Source: Sanghuangporus weigelae
Taxonomy: Eukaryota > Basidiomycota > Agaricomycetes > Hymenochaetales > Hymenochaetaceae
Assembly (NCBI GenBank): GCA_033182465.1
Contig: CP137320.1
Span: 1,674,001-1,738,000 of the forward strand
Length of the DNA: 64,000 bases
Direction: 5' to 3'
In this document: positions 52,855-64,000 of the stretch, one piece after another
Numbering within the stretch: position 1 is the first letter of the stretch
Layout: every line of letters begins with the position of its first letter
The notes under the pieces: model-generated
The model's input: the letters and a program-made list of their open reading frames with translations, nothing else
Database searches by the model: none
Told to the model about the DNA's origin: nothing
Program-made: the position numbers and the translations under genes

Positions 52855-52999
52855 ATTTCCGTGTAGCACACTCACATCGCTGCTGCATCGACGACTGCAA
52901 CTGTACTTTTATGCAAATACATTTCATTACAATTGATGCTAGATAAACAAAGGACAAGAATATATGAAGCAATGAGAAAATAAATGCTGGTGTGGTGAC

Positions 53000-53823
53000 T
53001 CAATCGATTTCCATCCCCATGGAACGCCCTTCGCCTGGTACAAGAGCGCTCTTTCGTGTAGGCACACGAACCTTCTGAACAATCTTCTCTTGTGACTCTT
53101 CGACCGAAAGCGCTGCCATAGGCTGTACGAGCTTGATAGTGCTCGGTGCAGCCAATTTCTTCTTCTTGCGGTGGGCAAGGAGTTTCGCGCGACTTGCGGC
53201 CATCCTGCGCACAGAACAAAATTCAATACATTTACGCTGCATGAAGTAAAAAATATGTGATAGTTGCGTACCGGTTTCGCCAGAATGCCTGCTCGCGCCT
53301 CTGTCTGATCTCTACGATACGCTTCATCGCCTTGATAGTCGTCCGAATGAGCTCCCTGTTGTACCGTACTGGGACGTTTCGCCTCTTCTCGAATTCGAAT
53401 GTTGAGTCCTAGCATTACCAACACCTGTGAGAAAGACTTTCTTCTATAATGAACTGAGCAACGTACAATAATCATCTCCTTCCCATGTGTTTTCCTAAAC
53501 GCTTTCGTCCAGCGTACTTTACGAGGATTTCGTTTCATTCTTATCACGATGTCAGGAACAGCCGGGATAAACCGATACAATGAACACAAACTTGAAATTT
53601 TTGTGACATCTAACACTGATGTTAACGATACAATGAAGCGATAATATTCGACAAAGACTCACTTTGAAGAGCAGAAACGGAACATTTTGGCATCGTTACG
53701 GACGAAGGCTGAGCCTGCATTGGTGTGTAATTTAGACACCCATAATACCATTGATTAGACGTTGCACGCACCATGACCCGGATAAACGCTCTTCGAGCAG
53801 AAATAGCACTTTTCGATCCTCAT
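53000..53823 (-). CDS. RLP24: Ribosome biogenesis protein RLP24
   Basis: Rlp24 occupies the eL24 site on pre-60S particles and is released by the AAA ATPase Drg1. Exons begin 53823-53772 ([18 protein letters not shown]), 53714-53663 ([15 protein letters not shown]), then an 18 nt microexon 53609-53592 (CHKNFK) and [37 protein letters not shown] and [18 protein letters not shown], ending [16 protein letters not shown] and a 50-residue tail. The Cys residues CYFC and CSSKCHKNF form the zinc site. Length and the VRWTKAFRK block distinguish it from eL24. The C terminus lies at 53000. It is convergent with ATG2. Confidence 0.93.
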
Positions 53824-54179
53824 CGTGTAGTGTCTTTGTAAAAACACTGGCAAGTCTTGTCTTCAAGTTCGCGTGTGAACCTAGTGTGATCACATCACGT
53901 GATACAAGTTATTACGTAGTAGTATAACGTAACTATGGTCTGCGCCGCCGATCACTCAGAGCAAAAATAATAATAATTCAAGTTCGATCAAAAACTTCAA
54001 CACTCTCAGAAGGACGAAATACCGTACTCTTCGATTTACAGATCATAAAAGTAGCCTATTCCCTGAAATTTTACATGAAATCCTGGGTGTCCATTGTTTT
54101 TCCAGAGCCTTCACTAAAAGGGTCTCGCTGGCTTTTTTTAAAAAACTACCTCTCAACATTCAGCTTGGTCCAGAGTCCT
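53824..54179. promoter_or_regulatory. Upstream region of RLP24, downstream of the ornithine monooxygenase
   Basis: 356 bp between two minus-strand genes. AT-rich with a T/A tract near 54130. Holds the RLP24 promoter. No gene is supported. Confidence 0.45.
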
Positions 54180-56186
54180 TCAGTTTGCATTGAGCAGATC
54201 GTCCAATACTTCACCCGAGCGAACGCTGGCGACGCTCAGGAGAGTATCACTAAGACCGTGAGTCGCTTCTTCACAGCCTTGAAGGTAGACGCGGTTGCCC
54301 GTGTCCTGAGCGGATGGAACGGGAAGCAGCTTATACGCGCGCGAAATTCGCAGCTGGATGGTCTGCGGAAGTGATCTCGGAGGCAGCGATATACTGGGCG
54401 AAGACGGCGGAGTACTTGACGAGCTACCAGTGTCACTCTCTGTGCTCAAATGGCGATCGTTATCGGGTTCCTGGACGAGCTCCGCTCCCTCCTTAACATT
54501 GCCGAAGGGTTTGCCTGTCTCGTACTGAGCGTTGTAGTGAGCTGGAACCAGGCGTACGCGCGTATCGTCCGTCGCAGTAGCCAGACCAAAGTCCTTCGCA
54601 AGGTTTGATTCACGAAGGAGACGAGTCCATGTCTTTCGCTCGTAGCCAGTTCCGCAAATAACGAAGTCGTAAGTGTCCTCCGTTAGCTGGTGCGTCCGAG
54701 TATTCTGACGTATGAGCGTGACACGGTGAGGTAGCGAAGCATATTTCTCCCGGGCAACCAAGTTGGCTCCGACGACAGTTTCGTTAATGCGGAGATTAAC
54801 GCGTGCCTTCAATACATTCTCGCCTTTACGAGAGGCAATCGCATCCGAAAGCCTTTGCTCATAAATAAGTTCATATAACTTATCGTGCATATGCCGTCAA
54901 GTCAGCTGATGTCGTAAGTATACGAAAATAGACCGCATACGTTATCAATGGTCTTCGGATTGACGACGCTGTAGTTCGTATTCTTGTACTCGTAGAGCAC
55001 CTGAGCTCTGAGGCGATCCGTTGGAAGGTTGTACCACTCGTCCGTTGCTATTCAGCGAGGATATCGAATTAGCATCGGGTCAACGACATCGCAGGATGGC
55101 ACATACCCGCAGGATCAAAGATCTCATTCACGAAGGGAGTGTCATCGCTGGGCTTGAGCGAATCTTTGCGAATGATCATATCGATCTGATGACCGCCGTG
55201 TGAAAGATCTTCAAGCCTATTGTACAGATCGATCAAGCACTCCGCGCAGCTCTGGCCGCCACCGACCATAGCGACCTTGAGCGGAGTTCCTGACTGCGTC
55301 AGCCTGTCTAGGAGCGAGCCAATCGAAATCATATAATACGACGTGTGGAATACCGGAACGCTAAGTGTGCTTTGTGTCGTCCATTGCGGAGGTTGAAGAA
55401 CTGCTAAGACACGGGGCAGCCTTGGAGAAGGACCAGTGGACAAAATGATGTCCTCTATCCGATTAATCGCGGTTAACTCATACTTATGAACTTCAAGCGA
55501 AATAGTCTGTTACGCACTTGTCCTGCGTACAACAACCTCACCGGATGGCGACCGACGACTCGTAACTTCAATAAGATCCCGTTCCTCGACTCGAATTTTG
55601 GAGATCGAGACGACCTCTTCACCATATGCAACATCGACGCCTCGTTTTGCTGCTTCGCGAGCCGCCCATCCAAGATAATCGGCGAACTCGCGCCGCGACG
55701 GGACGGTCGTAGAGCGATTAATGAACGCACTAAGGCGGTTCTGCGAGTGGAGATAATTAAGGAAGGTAAAATACGAGCACGGGTCACGCAGGGTCGCTAG
55801 ATCTTTCAAGCAGCTAAGAATATCGAGTAGGCTCGGTGTCAGAGAAGGTAAATCGAGAGACAGAAGAGGAGATGGAGCGAGGATGTACGCCAATCAGGGT
55901 GCCGGCTGACCTTATCTGCATCTTAGCGCCCGGGATGAGCATTCCCGGATGCCATTGGAACTCTGTATTCTTGTCTACGAAAATAGCACGTAGGTTTTGC
56001 TTGAGCTAAATAATCATTCGTTAGTTAAATGAGTGACGGGCGCAATAGTCGGCTGTCGTTTACCTCGTTAGGAGACCACTTATCGGAAATGGCTGCTGCA
56101 ATGGCGATATTTGCTGGACCGAACCCAACACCGAGGAGATCAAAGGTGTCTATCTGGGTGTGGGCAGGGTTGGAAGAACCGGCCAT
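54180..56186 (-). CDS. SMO1: L-ornithine N5-monooxygenase (SidA/SMO1-like)
   Basis: This FAD- and NADPH-dependent enzyme hydroxylates the side-chain amine of ornithine, the first committed step of hydroxamate siderophore synthesis. From the ATG at 56186 the protein reads MAGSSNPAHTQIDTF, then the FAD motif LLGVGFGPANIAIAAA and EFQWHPGMLIPGAKMQ, FTFLNYLHSQNRL, RREFADYLGWAA and VVRRTS. The NADPH motif VAMVGGGQSCAECLIDL lies near 55255, with DDTPFVNEIFDP after it. The ornithine-binding motif DFVICGTGYERK is near 54660. A Ser-rich insert (SSSSTPPSSPS) precedes the C-terminal EATHGLSDTLLSV, the usual family ending. Five or so small introns. Divergent from the NRPS. Confidence 0.95.
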
Positions 56187-56898
56187 GTTAAACTATTTGG
56201 AAATGCAAGTGCCTCTCGTCGGAGATGAAATAACGAGCGGAGGACGGGAAGAGGGAGAGAGGATGGGAGAGTTGTTGTGTGAGTGATTGATGAAGATGAC
56301 GGTTTTATTTATTTTCAGAAGAGTGGGTGGTAAATCCGCCAAGGAGGAGAATAGATTTCCTTGAAAGAAGAGGAAAAATTCACTGGCGAGTAGGAGGATA
56401 TATCGGGTGGAGACGGTGGATGAAAGTTGCGGCAGAATGAGGCGATATTGAATGAAGTATGAGGGATGAATCGGACATAGGGACTGGGCAGAGATCAGAG
56501 CACATTGAGCATAGGCATAGATGACGGACACAAAACGATATCAGATAATTGATATGATAGAGATAAAGTGATCTTATCTGATCGCGACGGATCCCACGAT
56601 CATTCGATTAGATGGACTTCGACTCCGACCAATTTTCGAGGGATGGATTCACGCGGAAGGTCCGGACAGTGGACGTGCAAAGAGAAGACGCAAAGTCCGA
56701 TGGCGAGAAGGTTCGCGGGCCGAATCGAAGTGTGGCGAGGATGGTTGAGTTGAGAGAGGGGCGTGATGATGACATATACATACATAGGTAGGACTACAAT
56801 CCATATCCATATGGCACATCTATGCCACTCACCGCATCATACATAAACTCAATGCGCTGATAGAGTTACTCCAGGTCGTGTGTTTCCCACTCCCAAAC
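56187..56898. promoter_or_regulatory. Shared promoter of the siderophore genes
   Basis: 712 bp between the starts of the monooxygenase (minus) and the NRPS (plus). A GATA-type motif cluster lies in the middle (56540-56582), 354 bp from one ATG and 317 bp from the other. See the separate site entry. Confidence 0.7.
56540..56582. promoter_or_regulatory. Inverted pair of ATCAGATAA sites (iron-GATA factor motif)
   Basis: ATCAGATAA at 56540-56548 on the plus strand and again at 56574-56582 on the minus strand (reads TTATCTGAT), with AGATAA at 56561-56566 and TGATAG just before. The nine-base form ATCWGATAA is the published target of SreA/Sre1-type iron-responsive GATA repressors that shut siderophore genes in iron-rich cells. 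The minus-strand copy is preceded by G, matching the ten-base version. Binding is inferred. Confidence 0.7.
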
Positions 56899-59800
56899 AT
56901 GTCTACGTCTGAGGACTCCGACTCTCCCTTCGCCGATTACCATTTCCTTTCTCTCCCGGATCTATCCACCCTTCGCCAGCCACAGTCTTCCCGTCAACTT
57001 CTTTCCGTTCGCATTGATCCCAACGTCTCGATCAAGGTTATCCTCGTCGCTCTTGCCCGATGTCTAGGTGCCTATTGTGGAGCCAGTGACGTTCTCCTCG
57101 CGTGGCACGTCCAAGACCCTCCGACAGATTCGCGCGCAATCACTGCTATTCGCGTCAATTGGACAAACTCGAGCAAATACGAAGATGTTCTGAATAACCT
57201 TATTCTTCGCAAATCCGACGACAATCCTTCGAGTATCCGATCTACTCTCGGAATCGAAATAGATGATGGTCTCCAGCCGTTTCTTGCTATTCTCACTTCA
57301 GATCTCGAATACAATCACCCTCTCCTCGCGTCTGTCGAATCAAAAGCCAATGGTTCTGAATCACAGCAAACATTGCACTTCAAGTATTCAACTCGCCATT
57401 TTCACGCGTCGTCTGCCAAGCTCCTTGCGAAAGAGGTAGCTGCGCTAACGGCTCGTATTGCGCAAGATCCTGCTTCTTCGCCGAAGTATCTTGATTTCCT
57501 TCCAGACGAACTACTGTCTATTGTTCCGATGCGTACAGACGGCACATCGTATACGCATTATCCGCCCGCTGGTAATATCATTGAATTCATCAAGCGGCAT
57601 GATCCCGCGACGGTGGAAATTGAGTATTACCCGGATCTGCATCTCGAGGAACCTGGTGCAGTCGAGCAATCCGTGCAGCTCTTGACGTTCGGAGACTTGG
57701 ACAAGCGTTCGAATCGGTTCGCGGCATACCTACTTGCACAAGGCCTCGAGCTTGAAGATCGAGTCACTATATGTATGCATCGGGGCTTAGAATATCATAT
57801 TGCTATGATTGGTGTACTCAAAGCAGGAGGCTGCTATGTACCTGTACGTTATCTCTTTAGAATCAGCAGGTCAGCTCCGTTGATTGTCATTTTCCAGATC
57901 GATCATGAACTACCTAAAGAACGACAGGACTTTATAAATGAGGATTCAGGTGCTCGCTTTACGCTTACGGCCGAAAACATTGAGGAGCACATCACAGCAT
58001 CCGAGTTGTATCCTGATGGCGATGTCAATAATACGCGCAGTGATGGACTTGCATATATGTTGTATACGAGCGGGACGACGGGTGCACCGAAAGGCTGTCT
58101 ACTTAAGCACGACGGGTTCGCACAGGCCATTCATGCACTGAGTTGGTTCGCAAATCAGGCAGGTCCCAACAAGCGTCGTTGGCCTCAAGCGGGACGTTAC
58201 CTCTGCGTTGCTTGTAAGCCTTTTCATGGTCTCTCGAAATCCAGTTCTAATCTATGTACCTAGCTGTCGCATTCGATGTGCATTTAGCGGAGATTTTCGT
58301 AGCTTTGTCACTTGGGATGACACTCATCTGTGCACCTCGCTCGCAATTATTCGAGGACTTGCCACGTTGGTTGCATAGACTTCATATCACGCATGTAGGG
58401 ATTGTTCCGAGTCTTATAGAAGCGACGATGCATGCAGTTGCGGAATCTGTAGAACTTGCAGTTGCTGACGATGGGACCGGCGTGAAGAACAAGACAATGG
58501 ATCTGGCGTACATTGCTAGTGGCGGTGAGAAAATGAGCGATTCGGTACCACCTTACTCTGGTTCACCATTACCAAGTTCTAAAAAGTGATTGTAGATCTT
58601 AGATAAATGGGCGGACAGCCCCCTTGTTACATTGGCAAACTTCTACGGTCCCAGCGAAACGACAATAGGGTGTTCGGCGCATCTCATGACTTCTGCGACG
58701 CGAAAGGAAAACATCGGCCGCATTTTTGAGAGTTGCTCTGCATACGTAGTCGATGAGAATCTCAAGCCGGTTGTCCGTGGTGGAGTGGGCGAGCTTCTTG
58801 TTGGAGGGCGTCTCGTCGGCCGCGGTTATCACAACCGATCAGATCTGACTGCAAAGGCTTTCATTGAATTTTCGCATGGTTCACACTGTGAAAGAGTTTA
58901 TCGTACAGGGGATCTCGGTAGGTTATCTGCTTGTGTCATATATGCGCAGAGTCTGGCTGAAGAGCGACGGTAGTCCGACTCATGCCGGACGATACAATGG
59001 AAATCCTAGGCCGCATTGACACCCAGATAAAACTCCGTGGAGTCCGCATAGAGTCGGAGGGTGTTTCGTCGGTCATCCGTAATGCTGCTGTCCGCTTCCC
59101 CGGTCTCCGTGTCAAGAATGCACCGGATGTTTCCACAATCCTCGCTCGCCATCCGCAATTGAAGACGGACCAGCTCGTCTCGTTCATTGGCCTCGATTCT
59201 ACAGCGACCATTGCTCACCGCCGGTCTACGAAACCAAGCATCTATGAGAATGTCCCTCGAGGTCTCATGCATGCTCTGAAGGAAGCATGCACCCGAGAGC
59301 TTGCGAGCTATATGCGTCCTGCGCATATTGTTCCGTTGGACTTTATTCCGTTAAACCAAAACGGGAAGACAGACAACAAAGTTCTCAGTGCTCTCTTCCA
59401 GTCCGAGAGCCTGGAGGCCCTCAGCCGTACGGGCGCTCAGAAGAGTGACCATCATGCTAATGGGATGGAATCTTCTCGCAGTCTGAATGAGACTGAGGTC
59501 AAGGTCGGCGAGATCATATGCAAGTACGCGGAGGTTCGCAAAGAGCAACTTACTCCTTCTTCAAATCTGTTCCAGCTTGGATTTGATTCTGTGAAGCTTG
59601 TACGACTAGCCTCAGAGTTTCGTTCCTTGTGTAACGCGAGGTCGTTATCCGTCGGTATCATTATTCAACATCCGACCATAGAGGAGCTAGCAACCCTCTT
59701 AGAGGGTGCCCAAGGCCCGAATCAAGGGAAGTCCAGCGTGTCTCGTGTTGAAGAGTTCGCGCAACAGTGGAGGCCAGAAGTCGAAGAAACTTATGGAGCC

Positions 59801-62800
59801 GAAAAGATCGAAAAAGCATTGCCTACCTTCCCTATCCAGGATGGTGTACTGTATCGCTCAGCGGATCTCAAGACTCTATACATACAACACGTCCTATTAC
59901 GAGTTCATGGCGATGTTGATATTGAGAAGCTGAAGAGTGCCTGGACTGCGCTTATGGCTCAGCATGAGATTCTCCGGTGAGATCCGTCATACATTGGTTC
60001 TTTTTTTGAAGCTAATATATCGCGAACTCATCAGCACTGTGTTCCACTATTCCTCATCTCTGGTGCAAGTAGTTCTTAAATCTGAAGCTTGTGATCTTCC
60101 ATGGCTTGAACGGGAAGTCCAGGCAGGTAGCGTTGAGGAGCTCCAGTCTAACTTTTTTGAGGAAGATGCTTTAGTAATCGCTCACTCAATCAACGAGAAC
60201 ATCAGCACGTCACCAGCCTTTCGGTTAGCTTGGTATCGTCTTGAGGGACAGGAAACGTCCGTTCTTACGTACTCTCTCCACCATGCCATATACGATGGGA
60301 TCTCCCTGCCTCTCCTTCTTCACGATGTCGAGACACTCTATCTTCATGAAAGTCCGCGGATGTCCTCGCCGCTCGCACAAGTGCTCGATGCAGTCTATGA
60401 CGTTGACATGGATGAGGCGGCCGCTTTTTGGAAAGAAACGTTTAGCGGATTCGATTGGTCCAGGATTCCGAGGCGTCTGGCATCCGGAGAAGTGGCCAAT
60501 GTCGCTACTAAGATTTTCAGGACTGGGCTCGGCAAATGGGAGAGAAACTCTGCTGAAATTAGAGTTTCCTTGCAGGCCGTCTTGACTGCGGCGTTTGGTA
60601 TTTGTTTGGGGGAGCAGCTCTATGGGGTTCCCGATGTTGTGTTCGGTGTACGTTTTTGATGTGTTATTTTCTCTCGTGTTTACTCTGATTGGTCTCGTTG
60701 TAGGTCATACGGTCTGGTCGTTCGTTTGCGAATGATAAGCTAAATGAAGCACGGGCGCCTTTACTGACTGTGGTTCCTACACGTGTCAACGCTGAACTGG
60801 GCGCGGAACTTTTACAGAAGGTCCAAAACGATATTGGAGCCGTACTCGCATTCGAGCACATTCCATTAAGTCGTGTACAGACGTGGGTCAAACCAGGCCG
60901 ACCGCTTTTCGAGGTGCTTTTTTCTGTTTCGATTGATGAGAAGGATAGAACGGAGCTCTGGGACATTCTTGAGAGTAAACAACCACAAGCAGACGTAAGC
61001 TCCATGTCGGCATCATTATTTTCCCCATCTAATACACTTATTTATCTTTTCGTAGTACATTCTCGCAGTGGAAGTAGTGCTTGATAAGAAGACCGGACAG
61101 ATCCGTATTGACTGTGGGTATACCGCGCCTTTGGAATCCCACGACGTCTGTCGCATTTTTGACGAATTAGAGAATACGGCCAGCTCCCTGGTGGAAGGCA
61201 AAGTCAGGACAGAACAAAAGTATCTTAACGGTACCAAGGTGTATGAGCAAGATACGGGAGATGATAGTGATGCTGAGGACCTTCCTGATGGACCGGTCGA
61301 TGAAGAGCTCCAAAGCAGGATACTTTCGGTCGTGTCGCAATTTCTCAAAATCGACTCAAGTCATATTTTGGAAACCTCTTCACTCGTCGCTCTTGGTCTA
61401 GACTCGATCAAATCCGTTGGATTGTCGCGTGCGCTACGAAAAGAGGGCATCGAAATCAGATCGCTTGATATAATGCGCCATCCTACTATACGTCGTATAG
61501 CTTCACGCTCGAGCCAGGCTCTTGGGTCTCAAGGAGTACAAGGTGAAGAGAGTGACCAAACTCGATTGTTGGCAGAGAAGCGAGAGAAAGTTGCTTCATT
61601 TGTTGACCGGAATTTATTGAAATTCGACGACAAGGACGAAGTTCAGCTTTATCCGACCACTATACTACAAGCCGGCATGTTATCTCAGGTATGATACATG
61701 ACTTTTCTCACGATCCGGTCGCTTATACAGGACCTTTAGACAATCAGCTCAGGCGGCCAATTATACGTGCATGCCTTCCCATTCGTACTGAAGAAGTCAA
61801 TAGATATCAATCGCCTCCGGGGCGCTTGGGAAAAGACGATTCAATATTTCAGCACCCTTCGCACCTCGTTCCACTTTGTTGAAAGCATGGGTGCATGGAT
61901 TCAGGCTGTACATTCATCGTATCGCTTGAATTGGCAAGAAATGAAAGTCCCCGATGGGAAGTCACCCTTCGTTTTGTCCGAAGAGTTCATCAAGGAGTTG
62001 GACTTGTCCTCCGAACGTAAACTTGCGGAACCACCGGTCTTCGCTCGGATGCTACGTCCGAACACTGGAGCTTCTTCGACCTGTACATTGTTGCTTGTCC
62101 TTCATCACGCGCTCTACGACGGAATCTCGGTATCACGACTATCGGAAGTTGTACGGACGTTTTATCGTGACGAACGGCCTGCTCCCTCACCACAATTTGT
62201 GGATTTATTGGGGTACTTCGAGTATCAAGAGTTACATGGTACCGACTTCTGGGTCCGCCAATTGCGTGGTTACAAGCGACCTGCCCTTCGAAGAAAGAGT
62301 GGAGACGGATCACCTACGGGCTCTGTCTCTTCGAGTGCTGACGTCACGTTGCCTGCTACTCGGATGAGCAAGGCCTGCCAGCACTTTGAAGTTACAGTTC
62401 AATGTTTCGGACAAGCAGCGTTTGCGACGGCGTTTGCGAAAGTATGCAACAAACGCGACTTAGTATACGGACATGTCGTATCGGGGCGTAGCGTGCCTCA
62501 TGCAGAAAATGTCTTAGGTCCAATGATAGTATGTACTACCCTTTCTCGAGGTCTCAAATAATGATACAGTGTTCTTTTTAGAGCACCTTGCCGTGTAGAT
62601 CTCACATCCCGGCAGGCATCAGAATCTTGGACTTCGTTCGTACCATACACAGACATAACATGGCTGCGCAGCGATGGCAGCATGCATCGCTGAGGTCGAT
62701 CCACAGGGAAGTTGGGCTGAGCTCACTTTGGGATGCTATCTTCCTATTCCAGCCCATAGTAGACGATACCTCTGATGAACAAGACGCTCTGTGGTCATTT

Positions 62801-64000
62801 GATGAATCAGAGGACGAAATCGCCAAGATACAGGTGAGACTAAATCTTCTCTTTTGATCGATTTCTTGCCGACTGAGTCGGACAGTACCCGCTGAATATC
62901 GAGCTCCACCAACATCGTGATCGCCTCATTATCAAAGCAGCAAGCCAAGTAGACTTCTTTGACCAAGCCGAATTGGAAGCCATTGTCCAGGATTTCTCCC
63001 AAATATTCATACGGATCGTCAATGAACCATTAGGGATCGTTCTTCCGCACCTTGCTATAGATGACAATGAGCAACATTCGCTAGCCAATGGCTTTATCCA
63101 TGACATTATGAAACGGCCCCGATCAACACTTGCGGACGTGAGGGTTTCAAGTTTCATTGCCATTCTATCTGCATGCGTCGAAGCTCCACCCAATTCAATT
63201 CAGCCTGATACTCCGCTCGTCTCTCTCGGCGTCGATTCTATTACAGCCATCCAGATCTCCTCGAGGGCACGGGAGGCCGGTCTGCGGTTGCATGCAGCGG
63301 ACGTTTTGCGCTGCCAAACACCCGACGATGTTATACTGATACTGGAGAGCAAGACGACTGAAAAGGATGCCCAGAGAAGACCGAACTCGCGTATCTCAAC
63401 CCAATTAAGAGATTCAATCGTACAACGCCTTAGTTCTTCCAAAGACTTGATAGAAGATATCTTTCCGGCGTCCGCCGGTATGGAGTGGCTCATTGGCATG
63501 TGGCAGATCAGCAATCGAGAGCGCTTCCAGCATGTTTTCGCATTCGAACTGCCAACTGATGTTGATGAGAACGCGCTAAAGTCGGCTTGGTGCACCCTCG
63601 TCCAGAAACACCCGATCCTACGATCTACGTTCGTGTCAATGACCGGTAATGACGTCAACGTCGTCGCGTTCAAGAAATTAACGGAAGAACGCCTCTGGTC
63701 CCGCCGAGATTTGTCGGTTGGGCATTCGGCAGCAAAACAGATCGAAGATTTTGCGAAAGAAATGGTTTCGAGACCACTTTCTACCGACCTTCCTCCTTGC
63801 CGGGCGGTCCTTTTCAGTAGCCGAGGATTAAAGGTCCTCGCTCTACACTTGCATCATTTCCAGTATGACGCGTGGAGCTTACGACTTCTTGCGAATGACC
63901 TCGAGAGTTTGTATAGAGGCGAAGGGGCCCATTACAGCGGAAATTTATCTGCATTCTTAGAAAACTGCGACTCCGAATACTTCAAGGATGAACAAATGCG
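56899..64000 (+). CDS. NPS2: Siderophore non-ribosomal peptide synthetase, A-T-C-T-C-T-C (3' end outside window)
   Basis: The synthetase would activate a hydroxamate amino acid (acylated N5-hydroxyornithine is expected) and join copies into a siderophore. After about 220 residues starting MSTSEDSDSPFADYHF comes one adenylation domain (about 57580-59400): YMLYTSGTTGAPKG, NFYGPSETTIG, YRTGDL, GRIDTQIKLRGVRIE and LNQNGKTDNKV with the A10 lysine. Carrier 1 is LGFDSVKL (59575), condensation 1 has HHAIYDGIS (60280), carrier 2 LGLDSIKS (61395), condensation 2 HHALYDGIS (62105), carrier 3 LGVDSITA (63220), and condensation 3 begins at about 63450 with HHFQYDAWS and is cut by the window. One A domain serving three carriers is the layout of basidiomycete basidioferrin/ferrichrome synthetases. 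All core motifs are intact. Confidence 0.94.

What the first reader, a model, noticed from the sequence alone, without database searches (positions are those of the whole stretch)
56187..56898. Two inverted ATCAGATAA iron-GATA sites at the centre of the divergent siderophore promoter
Seen: ATCAGATAA at 56540-56548 (plus) and 56574-56582 (minus), plus AGATAA at 56561, inside the only 712 bp shared by the ornithine monooxygenase and the NRPS. A nine-base match with W allowed is expected about 0.01 times per strand in this length, so two in opposite orientation are unlikely by chance. Known: ATCWGATAA is bound by SreA/Sre1/Urbs1-type repressors that silence siderophore genes when iron is plentiful. 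Inference: one repressor platform controls both genes at once.
Basis: partly seen in the sequence, partly recalled or inferred. Interest (0 to 1): 0.75.

Follow-up and report, generated by a model that had tools for sequence, protein, structure and literature searches.

The report
Iron-repressor sites in siderophore promoter
Between two fungal genes that make an iron-scavenging compound lies a pair of short DNA signals that also sits in front of several other iron-uptake genes of the same genome, so an iron-sensing repressor of a known type very probably controls them together; the kind of control is already known from other fungi.

Summary
In detail: ATCAGATAA lies at 56540-56548 (+) and 56574-56582 (-), with AGATAA at 56561, in the 712 bp between an ornithine monooxygenase gene and a siderophore NRPS gene. 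They are the window's only two ATCWGATAA. The word is not in excess genome-wide (680 against 667 reversed), but close pairs (gap 10-40) occur at only four places, three of them upstream of iron-type genes: this promoter, a ferric reductase and an Acetyltransf_8 gene. Loci of six iron-related families hold 13 against 1.7 expected, including sites 102-215 bp before the predicted starts of FTR1, a FET3-like oxidase and a transporter. The genome encodes a GATA protein with two fingers and a four-cysteine stretch between, as in SreA/Urbs1. Best reading: that repressor, iron-loaded, binds this bidirectional promoter and silences both genes. It is a new member of a known kind: PMC2610380 states that the Urbs1 sites at Ustilago maydis sid1 fit the same motif. 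Binding, iron response and conservation in relatives could not be tested.

The parts
56187..56898 (.). Bidirectional promoter region (712 bp) between the ornithine monooxygenase and NRPS start codons
   Evidence: start codons read from sequence
56540..56548 (+). ATCAGATAA, candidate SreA/Urbs1-type repressor site 1 (354 bp from monooxygenase ATG, 351 bp from NRPS ATG)
56574..56582 (-). ATCAGATAA, candidate repressor site 2, inverted (388 bp from monooxygenase ATG, 317 bp from NRPS ATG)
56561..56566 (+). AGATAA, plain GATA core between the two nonamers
56555..56560 (+). TGATAG, further HGATAR core between the two nonamers
54180..56186 (-). L-ornithine N5-monooxygenase gene (SidA/Sid1 type), several exons; start codon 56186-56184
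   Evidence: Pfam Lys_Orn_oxgnase E 7e-16 and 2.2e-25 on two exons; no match on the last exon scanned
56899..64000 (+). Siderophore NRPS gene with domain order A-T-C-T-C-T-C (type VI like); runs past the window end into L025
   Evidence: continuation read by eye

Best explanation
The 712-bp stretch is the shared promoter of the two core siderophore genes. The two inverted ATCAGATAA nonamers, 34 bp apart start to start, are operator sites for the fungus's SreA/Urbs1-type iron repressor, a GATA protein with two zinc fingers and a four-cysteine stretch between them. When iron is plentiful the iron-loaded repressor binds the pair and keeps both the ornithine monooxygenase and the NRPS silent; when iron is scarce it leaves and both are expressed, together with FTR1, a FET3-like oxidase, a transporter, ferric reductases and an acetyltransferase that carry the same nonamer. 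Shown here: sites, gene arrangement, enrichment of the nonamer at iron-family loci, presence of a gene with the repressor's architecture. Inferred: binding, iron dependence, direction (repression), and that one pair serves both genes.
For: Sites and arrangement. In 33.87 Mb only 4 places have two nonamers with a gap of 10-40 bp: 3 facing inverted (reversed-word control 1 place), 1 direct (control 0), 0 outward (control 0); about 0.42 expected, P(>=4) 1e-3. 3 of the 4 are upstream of iron-type genes: this one; a ferric reductase (C7:2550927); an Acetyltransf_8 gene (C9:6725). Loci of six iron-related families (84,592 bp) hold 13 nonamers against 1.70 expected, P 3e-8; the reversed word occurs 3 times there. 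Ferric_reduct was searched after the C7 pair had been seen; without that segment 11 against 1.63, P 1e-6, and if the three hits not lying in a promoter are dropped too, 8 against 1.63, P 3e-4. 10 of the 13 lie 64-518 bp upstream of a predicted start codon. SreA/Urbs1 architecture at C2: GATA fingers on two exons with four cysteines in the stretch between. PMC2610380 (sections 12 and 13 read): ATCWGATAA is over-represented in the SreA regulon, the U. [quoted passage not shown] pombe and U. maydis.
Against: No binding, expression or cross-species data. The sites lie 317-388 bp from the start codons, farther than at FTR1, the FET3-like gene, the transporter and the acetyltransferase (64-215 bp), though like the C7 ferric reductase (393-429 bp). 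Most members of the broad families have no nonamer in the stretch held: 5 of 7 TRI12 segments, 8 of 11 ferric-reductase segments, 2 of 3 acetyltransferase segments, VIT1 and HapX. One of the four pairs lies in a coding exon of a coiled-coil gene, one nonamer in a coding exon of a reductase-family gene, two overlapping ones in a BolA intron. Plain HGATAR is also denser in the seven chosen promoters (21 outside the nonamers in 4,279 bp, 4.9 per kb) than in the window (2.8 per kb), much as upstream of ammonium transporters (4.2 per kb). A second locus (C10) also shows two GATA fingers, without the four-cysteine stretch. The zero nonamers of the control loci are weak evidence: 1.5 were expected in 76 kb. 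The other genomic nonamers, the great majority of 680, were not looked at.
Confidence: 0.86

Rival explanations
1. The sites are bound by another GATA factor (nitrogen AreA/Nit2 type, light or development GATA factor), so the promoter answers to nitrogen or light rather than iron.
For: Nine GATA-finger matches lie at seven loci, two of these loci with two fingers (C2, C10), and the core WGATAA is contained in the nonamer. Plain HGATAR is also denser than background in the iron promoters.
Against: The ATC extension is common in the iron promoters (12 of 19 WGATAA cores) and absent from comparison sequence (0 of 155) and from 4,503 bp at three ammonium-transporter loci, which hold 19 HGATAR. Those three stretches are a small sample, one of them partly coding, and their nitrogen control is assumed.
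Confidence: 0.07
2. Chance: two nonamers happen to fall in this promoter and do nothing.
For: The whole window is expected to hold 1.56 nonamers by chance and holds 2; chance pairs do occur (C11 pair in a coding exon).
Against: P about 1e-4 for two or more in 712 bp; 3 of 4 pairs genome-wide are at iron-type genes; 13 against 1.7 in iron-family loci, still 8 against 1.6 on the strictest count.
Confidence: 0.03
3. The pair is real but works on only one of the two genes; or control is mainly by HapX/CCAAT-complex activation with the GATA sites minor.
For: A HapX-type gene is present and one CCAAT lies in this promoter, 270 bp before the NRPS start; CCAAT is a common word and says little.
Against: The pair is central, almost equally far from both start codons, and no other nonamer is in the 712 bp.
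Confidence: 0.2

Closest known systems
Ustilago maydis sid1 promoter and Urbs1
   Same: Ornithine monooxygenase gene of a basidiomycete under an iron GATA repressor; [quoted passage not shown] maydis and S. pombe. PMC10672361 (passages): Urbs1 regulates sid1, sid2, fer1, fer2.
   Different: Here the sites lie at the centre of a short 712-bp shared promoter. In U. maydis they are called distal in the title of An et al. 1997 (title seen in reference lists; paper not held). That sid1 and sid2 are divergent and kilobases apart is recalled, not read.
Aspergillus fumigatus SreA regulon
   Same: ATCWGATAA over-represented (5.4-fold) upstream of 49 putative SreA-regulated genes while HGATAR is only slightly higher; similar here at family level.
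   Different: That regulon rests on expression data. [quoted passage not shown] Here no nonamer was found at the HapX-type gene (3,051 bp held) or the SreA-type locus (10 kb held), whereas a passage of PMC10602907 says SreA represses hapX in A. fumigatus.
Histoplasma capsulatum Sre1 and the SID gene cluster
   Same: Consensus (G/A)ATC(T/A)GATAA at least once in the 5' region of all genes of the siderophore cluster, some of them divergent pairs with one intergenic region (PMC2275787 passages).
   Different: Different siderophore cluster, of several adjacent genes; here one divergent pair, the other nonamer-bearing iron genes lying on other contigs.
CsNPS2 (basidioferrin) and Cpf1 (coprinoferrin) type VI siderophore loci
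   Same: NRPS reduced to the tri-ornithine region (PMC10192304 passages), with an ornithine monooxygenase gene in the cluster (PMC12617850 passages); domain order here A-T-C-T-C-T-C.
   Different: 'GATA' and 'promoter' do not occur in PMC12617850. Product of this locus not determined.

Membership tests
SreA/Urbs1/Sre1/Fep1 iron-GATA regulon promoter | Exact ATCWGATAA sites upstream of a siderophore gene | tested here: met
SreA/Urbs1/Sre1/Fep1 iron-GATA regulon promoter | Same motif over-represented at other iron-acquisition genes of the genome | tested here: met
   13 against 1.70 expected in 84,592 bp; 8 against 1.63 on the strictest count. Plain HGATAR is near background in three of six families and higher at FTR1, VIT1 and HapX
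SreA/Urbs1/Sre1/Fep1 iron-GATA regulon promoter | Genome encodes a GATA protein with two zinc fingers and a four-cysteine region between | tested here: met
   C2:1262337-1263617; PF00320 on both exons; four cysteines in the stretch between; definition from PMC2848559 passages. No full gene model or tree was made
SreA/Urbs1/Sre1/Fep1 iron-GATA regulon promoter | Direct binding of the repressor to the sites | not testable with these tools
   needs EMSA or ChIP
SreA/Urbs1/Sre1/Fep1 iron-GATA regulon promoter | Transcription repressed by iron | not testable with these tools
   no transcript data
SreA/Urbs1/Sre1/Fep1 iron-GATA regulon promoter | Sites conserved in orthologous promoters | not testable with these tools
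   no relatives of this genome are held; one scan of viral and one of prokaryote contigs gave no fungal relative
Type VI basidiomycete siderophore NRPS locus (CsNPS2/Cpf1) | Single adenylation domain followed by three T-C units, with an ornithine monooxygenase gene beside it | tested here: met
   (last Condensation domain starts in the window; its rest was read by eye in L025, not scanned). Basidiomycete origin is inference
Nitrogen GATA (AreA type) target promoter | GATA cores like those upstream of ammonium transporters | tested here: inconclusive
   three such stretches hold 19 HGATAR but no ATCWGATAA; small sample, one partly coding, nitrogen control of those genes assumed

The most novel reading that the evidence does not exclude
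In this fungus close pairs of the nonamer are a distinguishing code of the iron repressor for siderophore synthesis and ferric reduction, and the repressor also feeds back on an iron-sensing partner through a palindromic double site (TTATCTGATAA) inside an intron of a BolA-like gene.
Probability: 0.12. Interest if true: 0.55.

Novelty: new member of a known kind. Interest (0 to 1): 0.36.

Why it matters
It gives a testable iron-regulon prediction for a fungus with a type VI siderophore locus, and shows, partly by a gene-blind pair search, that the extended ATCWGATAA word reported from ascomycetes and Ustilago marks iron genes here as well. A 43-bp element that should switch two genes in opposite directions is a handy test of shared repression.

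Tried and rejected
Genome-wide excess of the nonamer: none (680 against 667 for the reversed word), so the total count says nothing; pairs and iron-family loci do. Autoregulation: no exact nonamer in 10 kb at the SreA-type locus. Organism: a paper search on genome size gave nothing usable; 'basidiomycete' is my inference from dense introns and the type VI NRPS, not a tool result. CCAAT boxes were looked at and dropped as uninformative. The seven promoters were chosen because they carry the nonamer, so 12 of 19 is descriptive. The family count is less biased but not blind: I chose the six families as iron-related, and Ferric_reduct after seeing the C7 pair; counts without that segment are given. 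The TRI12 and Ferric_reduct families are broad, and flanks of 1.5 kb round a matched exon may miss a promoter.

For these I lowered the main confidence from 0.88 to 0.86 and raised the other-GATA-factor rival from 0.06 to 0.07.

Full report
The observation. Sequence and pattern search confirm ATCAGATAA at 56540-56548 (+) and 56574-56582 (-) and AGATAA at 56561-56566. They are the only two ATCWGATAA matches in the 64 kb. A fourth HGATAR core, TGATAG, is at 56555; no other of the window's 179 HGATAR positions has four starts within 40 bp. The stretch 56187-56898 separates the start codons, as I read them, of two divergent genes: an ornithine monooxygenase on the minus strand (Lys_Orn_oxgnase on two of three exons scanned) and an NRPS on the plus strand with AMP-binding, PP-binding and Condensation domains in the order A-T-C-T-C-T-C (the last domain continues into L025, read by eye). 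PMC10192304 and PMC12617850 (passages) describe type VI siderophore NRPS genes, CsNPS2 and Cpf1, as reduced to the tri-ornithine region and as having a monooxygenase gene in the same cluster.

Chance. The window lies in a genome of 33,870,148 bases in 13 contigs. It holds 680 ATCWGATAA (349 forward, 331 reverse) against 667 for the reversed word, so there is no overall excess. At that density 712 bp should hold 0.014, and two or more have a probability of 1e-4. Pairs were then searched without regard to genes. Facing inverted pairs with a gap of 10-40 bp: 3 places (control word 1 place). Direct pairs: 1 place (control 0). Outward pairs: none (control 0). If sites fell evenly, about 0.42 pairs in all would be expected (P of four or more 1e-3; for the three inverted, 0.11 expected, P 2e-4). 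Three of the four places lie upstream of iron-type genes: this promoter; a ferric reductase on C7 with the pair 393-429 bp before its predicted start; and an Acetyltransf_8 gene on C9 with the pair 64-91 bp before its predicted start. The fourth lies in a coding exon of a coiled-coil gene on C11.

Iron families. The genome was searched for FTR1, TRI12 (which takes in siderophore transporters), Ferric_reduct, Acetyltransf_8, VIT1 and the HapX-type Hap4_Hap_bind, and nonamers were counted in all loci returned. The union, 84,592 bp, holds 13 against 1.70 expected (P 3e-8); the reversed word occurs 3 times. Ferric_reduct was chosen after the C7 pair had been seen. Without that segment the count is 11 against 1.63 (P 1e-6); dropping also the three hits that lie in no promoter it is 8 against 1.63 (P 3e-4). 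Ten of the 13 lie upstream of predicted start codons: FTR1 (-114); a multicopper oxidase gene next to FTR1, read as FET3 (-215, -157, -102; Cu-oxidase_3); an MFS transporter on C7 read by eye as siderophore type (-125); ferric reductases on C7 (-429, -393) and C4 (-518); and the acetyltransferase (-91, -64). The other three are one in a coding exon of a reductase-family gene and two overlapping ones in an intron of a BolA-like gene. Many members have none in the stretch held: 5 of 7 TRI12 segments, 8 of 11 ferric-reductase segments, 2 of 3 acetyltransferase segments, VIT1 and HapX. Start codons are my reading of the sequence.

Comparison sequence. No nonamer occurs in 66,000 bp at seven GATA-factor loci or in the 10,000 bp beyond the window, but only 1.5 were expected there. 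None occurs in 4,503 bp at three ammonium-transporter loci, which hold 19 HGATAR; in one of these (C12) the match begins at profile position 201, so that stretch is partly coding. In the seven nonamer-bearing iron promoters (4,279 bp, this one included) 12 of 19 WGATAA cores have ATC before them; in 139 kb of comparison sequence 0 of 155 do, where the genome rate would give 2.8 nonamers; for the whole genome I estimate 1.8%. Plain HGATAR is near background in the TRI12, ferric-reductase and acetyltransferase loci (2.4-3.1 per kb against 2.7-2.9) and higher at FTR1 (4.7), VIT1 (3.6) and HapX (3.9). In the seven chosen promoters it is raised even outside the nonamers (4.9 per kb), much as at the ammonium-transporter stretches (4.2 per kb). 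So the extended word is the strong signal, and plain cores a weak one. PMC2610380 section 12 (read) reports a like pattern for Aspergillus fumigatus.

The repressor. Of the seven GATA-factor loci (nine finger matches) two have two fingers. At C2:1262337-1263617 the fingers lie on separate exons (PF00320 on both) with a stretch of four cysteines between them. At C10:1121997-1122388 two fingers lie close together without such a stretch. PMC2848559 (passages) gives two fingers separated by a four-cysteine region as characteristic of the iron GATA repressors, which points to C2. The best PDB sequence matches of its second exon are animal GATA-3 and GATA-1, with AreA among the others. No full gene model or tree was made, so orthology rests on this architecture.

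Mechanism and how sure. I hold it very likely (0.86) that the pair is an operator of the SreA/Urbs1-type repressor and that iron represses through it. That it governs both genes together is likely (about 0.75), from its central place and the lack of any other nonamer, but not shown. Inferred steps: binding, iron loading, repression, sharing.

Novelty. The kind is known. PMC2610380 states that the in vivo sites at Ustilago maydis sid1 comply with ATCWGATAA and that sidA orthologues are clustered with an NRPS there and in S. pombe (section 13). PMC2275787 (passages) reports the extended motif in Histoplasma siderophore promoters, some of them divergent. PMC10602907 (passage) reports SreA occupancy at promoters with ATCWGATA in Fusarium by ChIP-qPCR. 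PMC9959139 (passages) lists sreA, urbs1, sidA, ftrA and fetC among differentially expressed genes of Antrodia cinnamomea with iron. My searches listed no paper whose title or abstract start maps ATCWGATAA over an iron regulon of a mushroom-type fungus; several of those lists were capped, the library holds only open-licence papers, and I read passages or single sections, so I do not claim that none exists.

Limits. Most of the 680 genomic nonamers were not examined.

Noticed in passing
L039:3114-3124 (G000 C3:2662431-2662441): Palindrome TTATCTGATAA (two overlapping nonamers) inside an intron, as I read it, of a BolA-like gene (PF01722, E 9e-14 on exons joined by me). BolA-type proteins partner glutaredoxins in iron sensing (recalled), so feedback is conceivable; chance is likelier.
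   Followed up: partly
L031:2888-3009 (G000 C9:1765610-1765731): Three nonamers within 122 bp, 102-215 bp before the predicted start of a FET3-like gene, the most in one promoter among the loci held; FTR1 and this gene lie head to tail.
   Followed up: yes
L056:2483-2518 (G000 C9:6725-6760): The genome's only direct nonamer pair with a gap of 10-40 lies 64-91 bp before an Acetyltransf_8 gene about 6 kb from the contig's low end; a candidate hydroxyornithine acetyltransferase lying away from the siderophore locus.
   Followed up: partly
L024:4997-5388 (G000 C10:1121997-1122388): A second GATA-factor locus with two fingers, close together and without a four-cysteine stretch.
   Followed up: partly
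L065 and L023: No exact nonamer at the HapX-type gene (3,051 bp held) or the SreA-type locus (10 kb held), unlike the SreA-HapX cross-control described for Aspergillus.
   Followed up: partly
L025:936-9339: Beyond the NRPS, on the minus strand, lie a large gene that reads by eye as glutamate synthase and a small deaminase-like gene.
   Followed up: no
52942-53860 (-): The gene next to the monooxygenase reads by eye as an Rlp24-type ribosome biogenesis factor.
   Followed up: no
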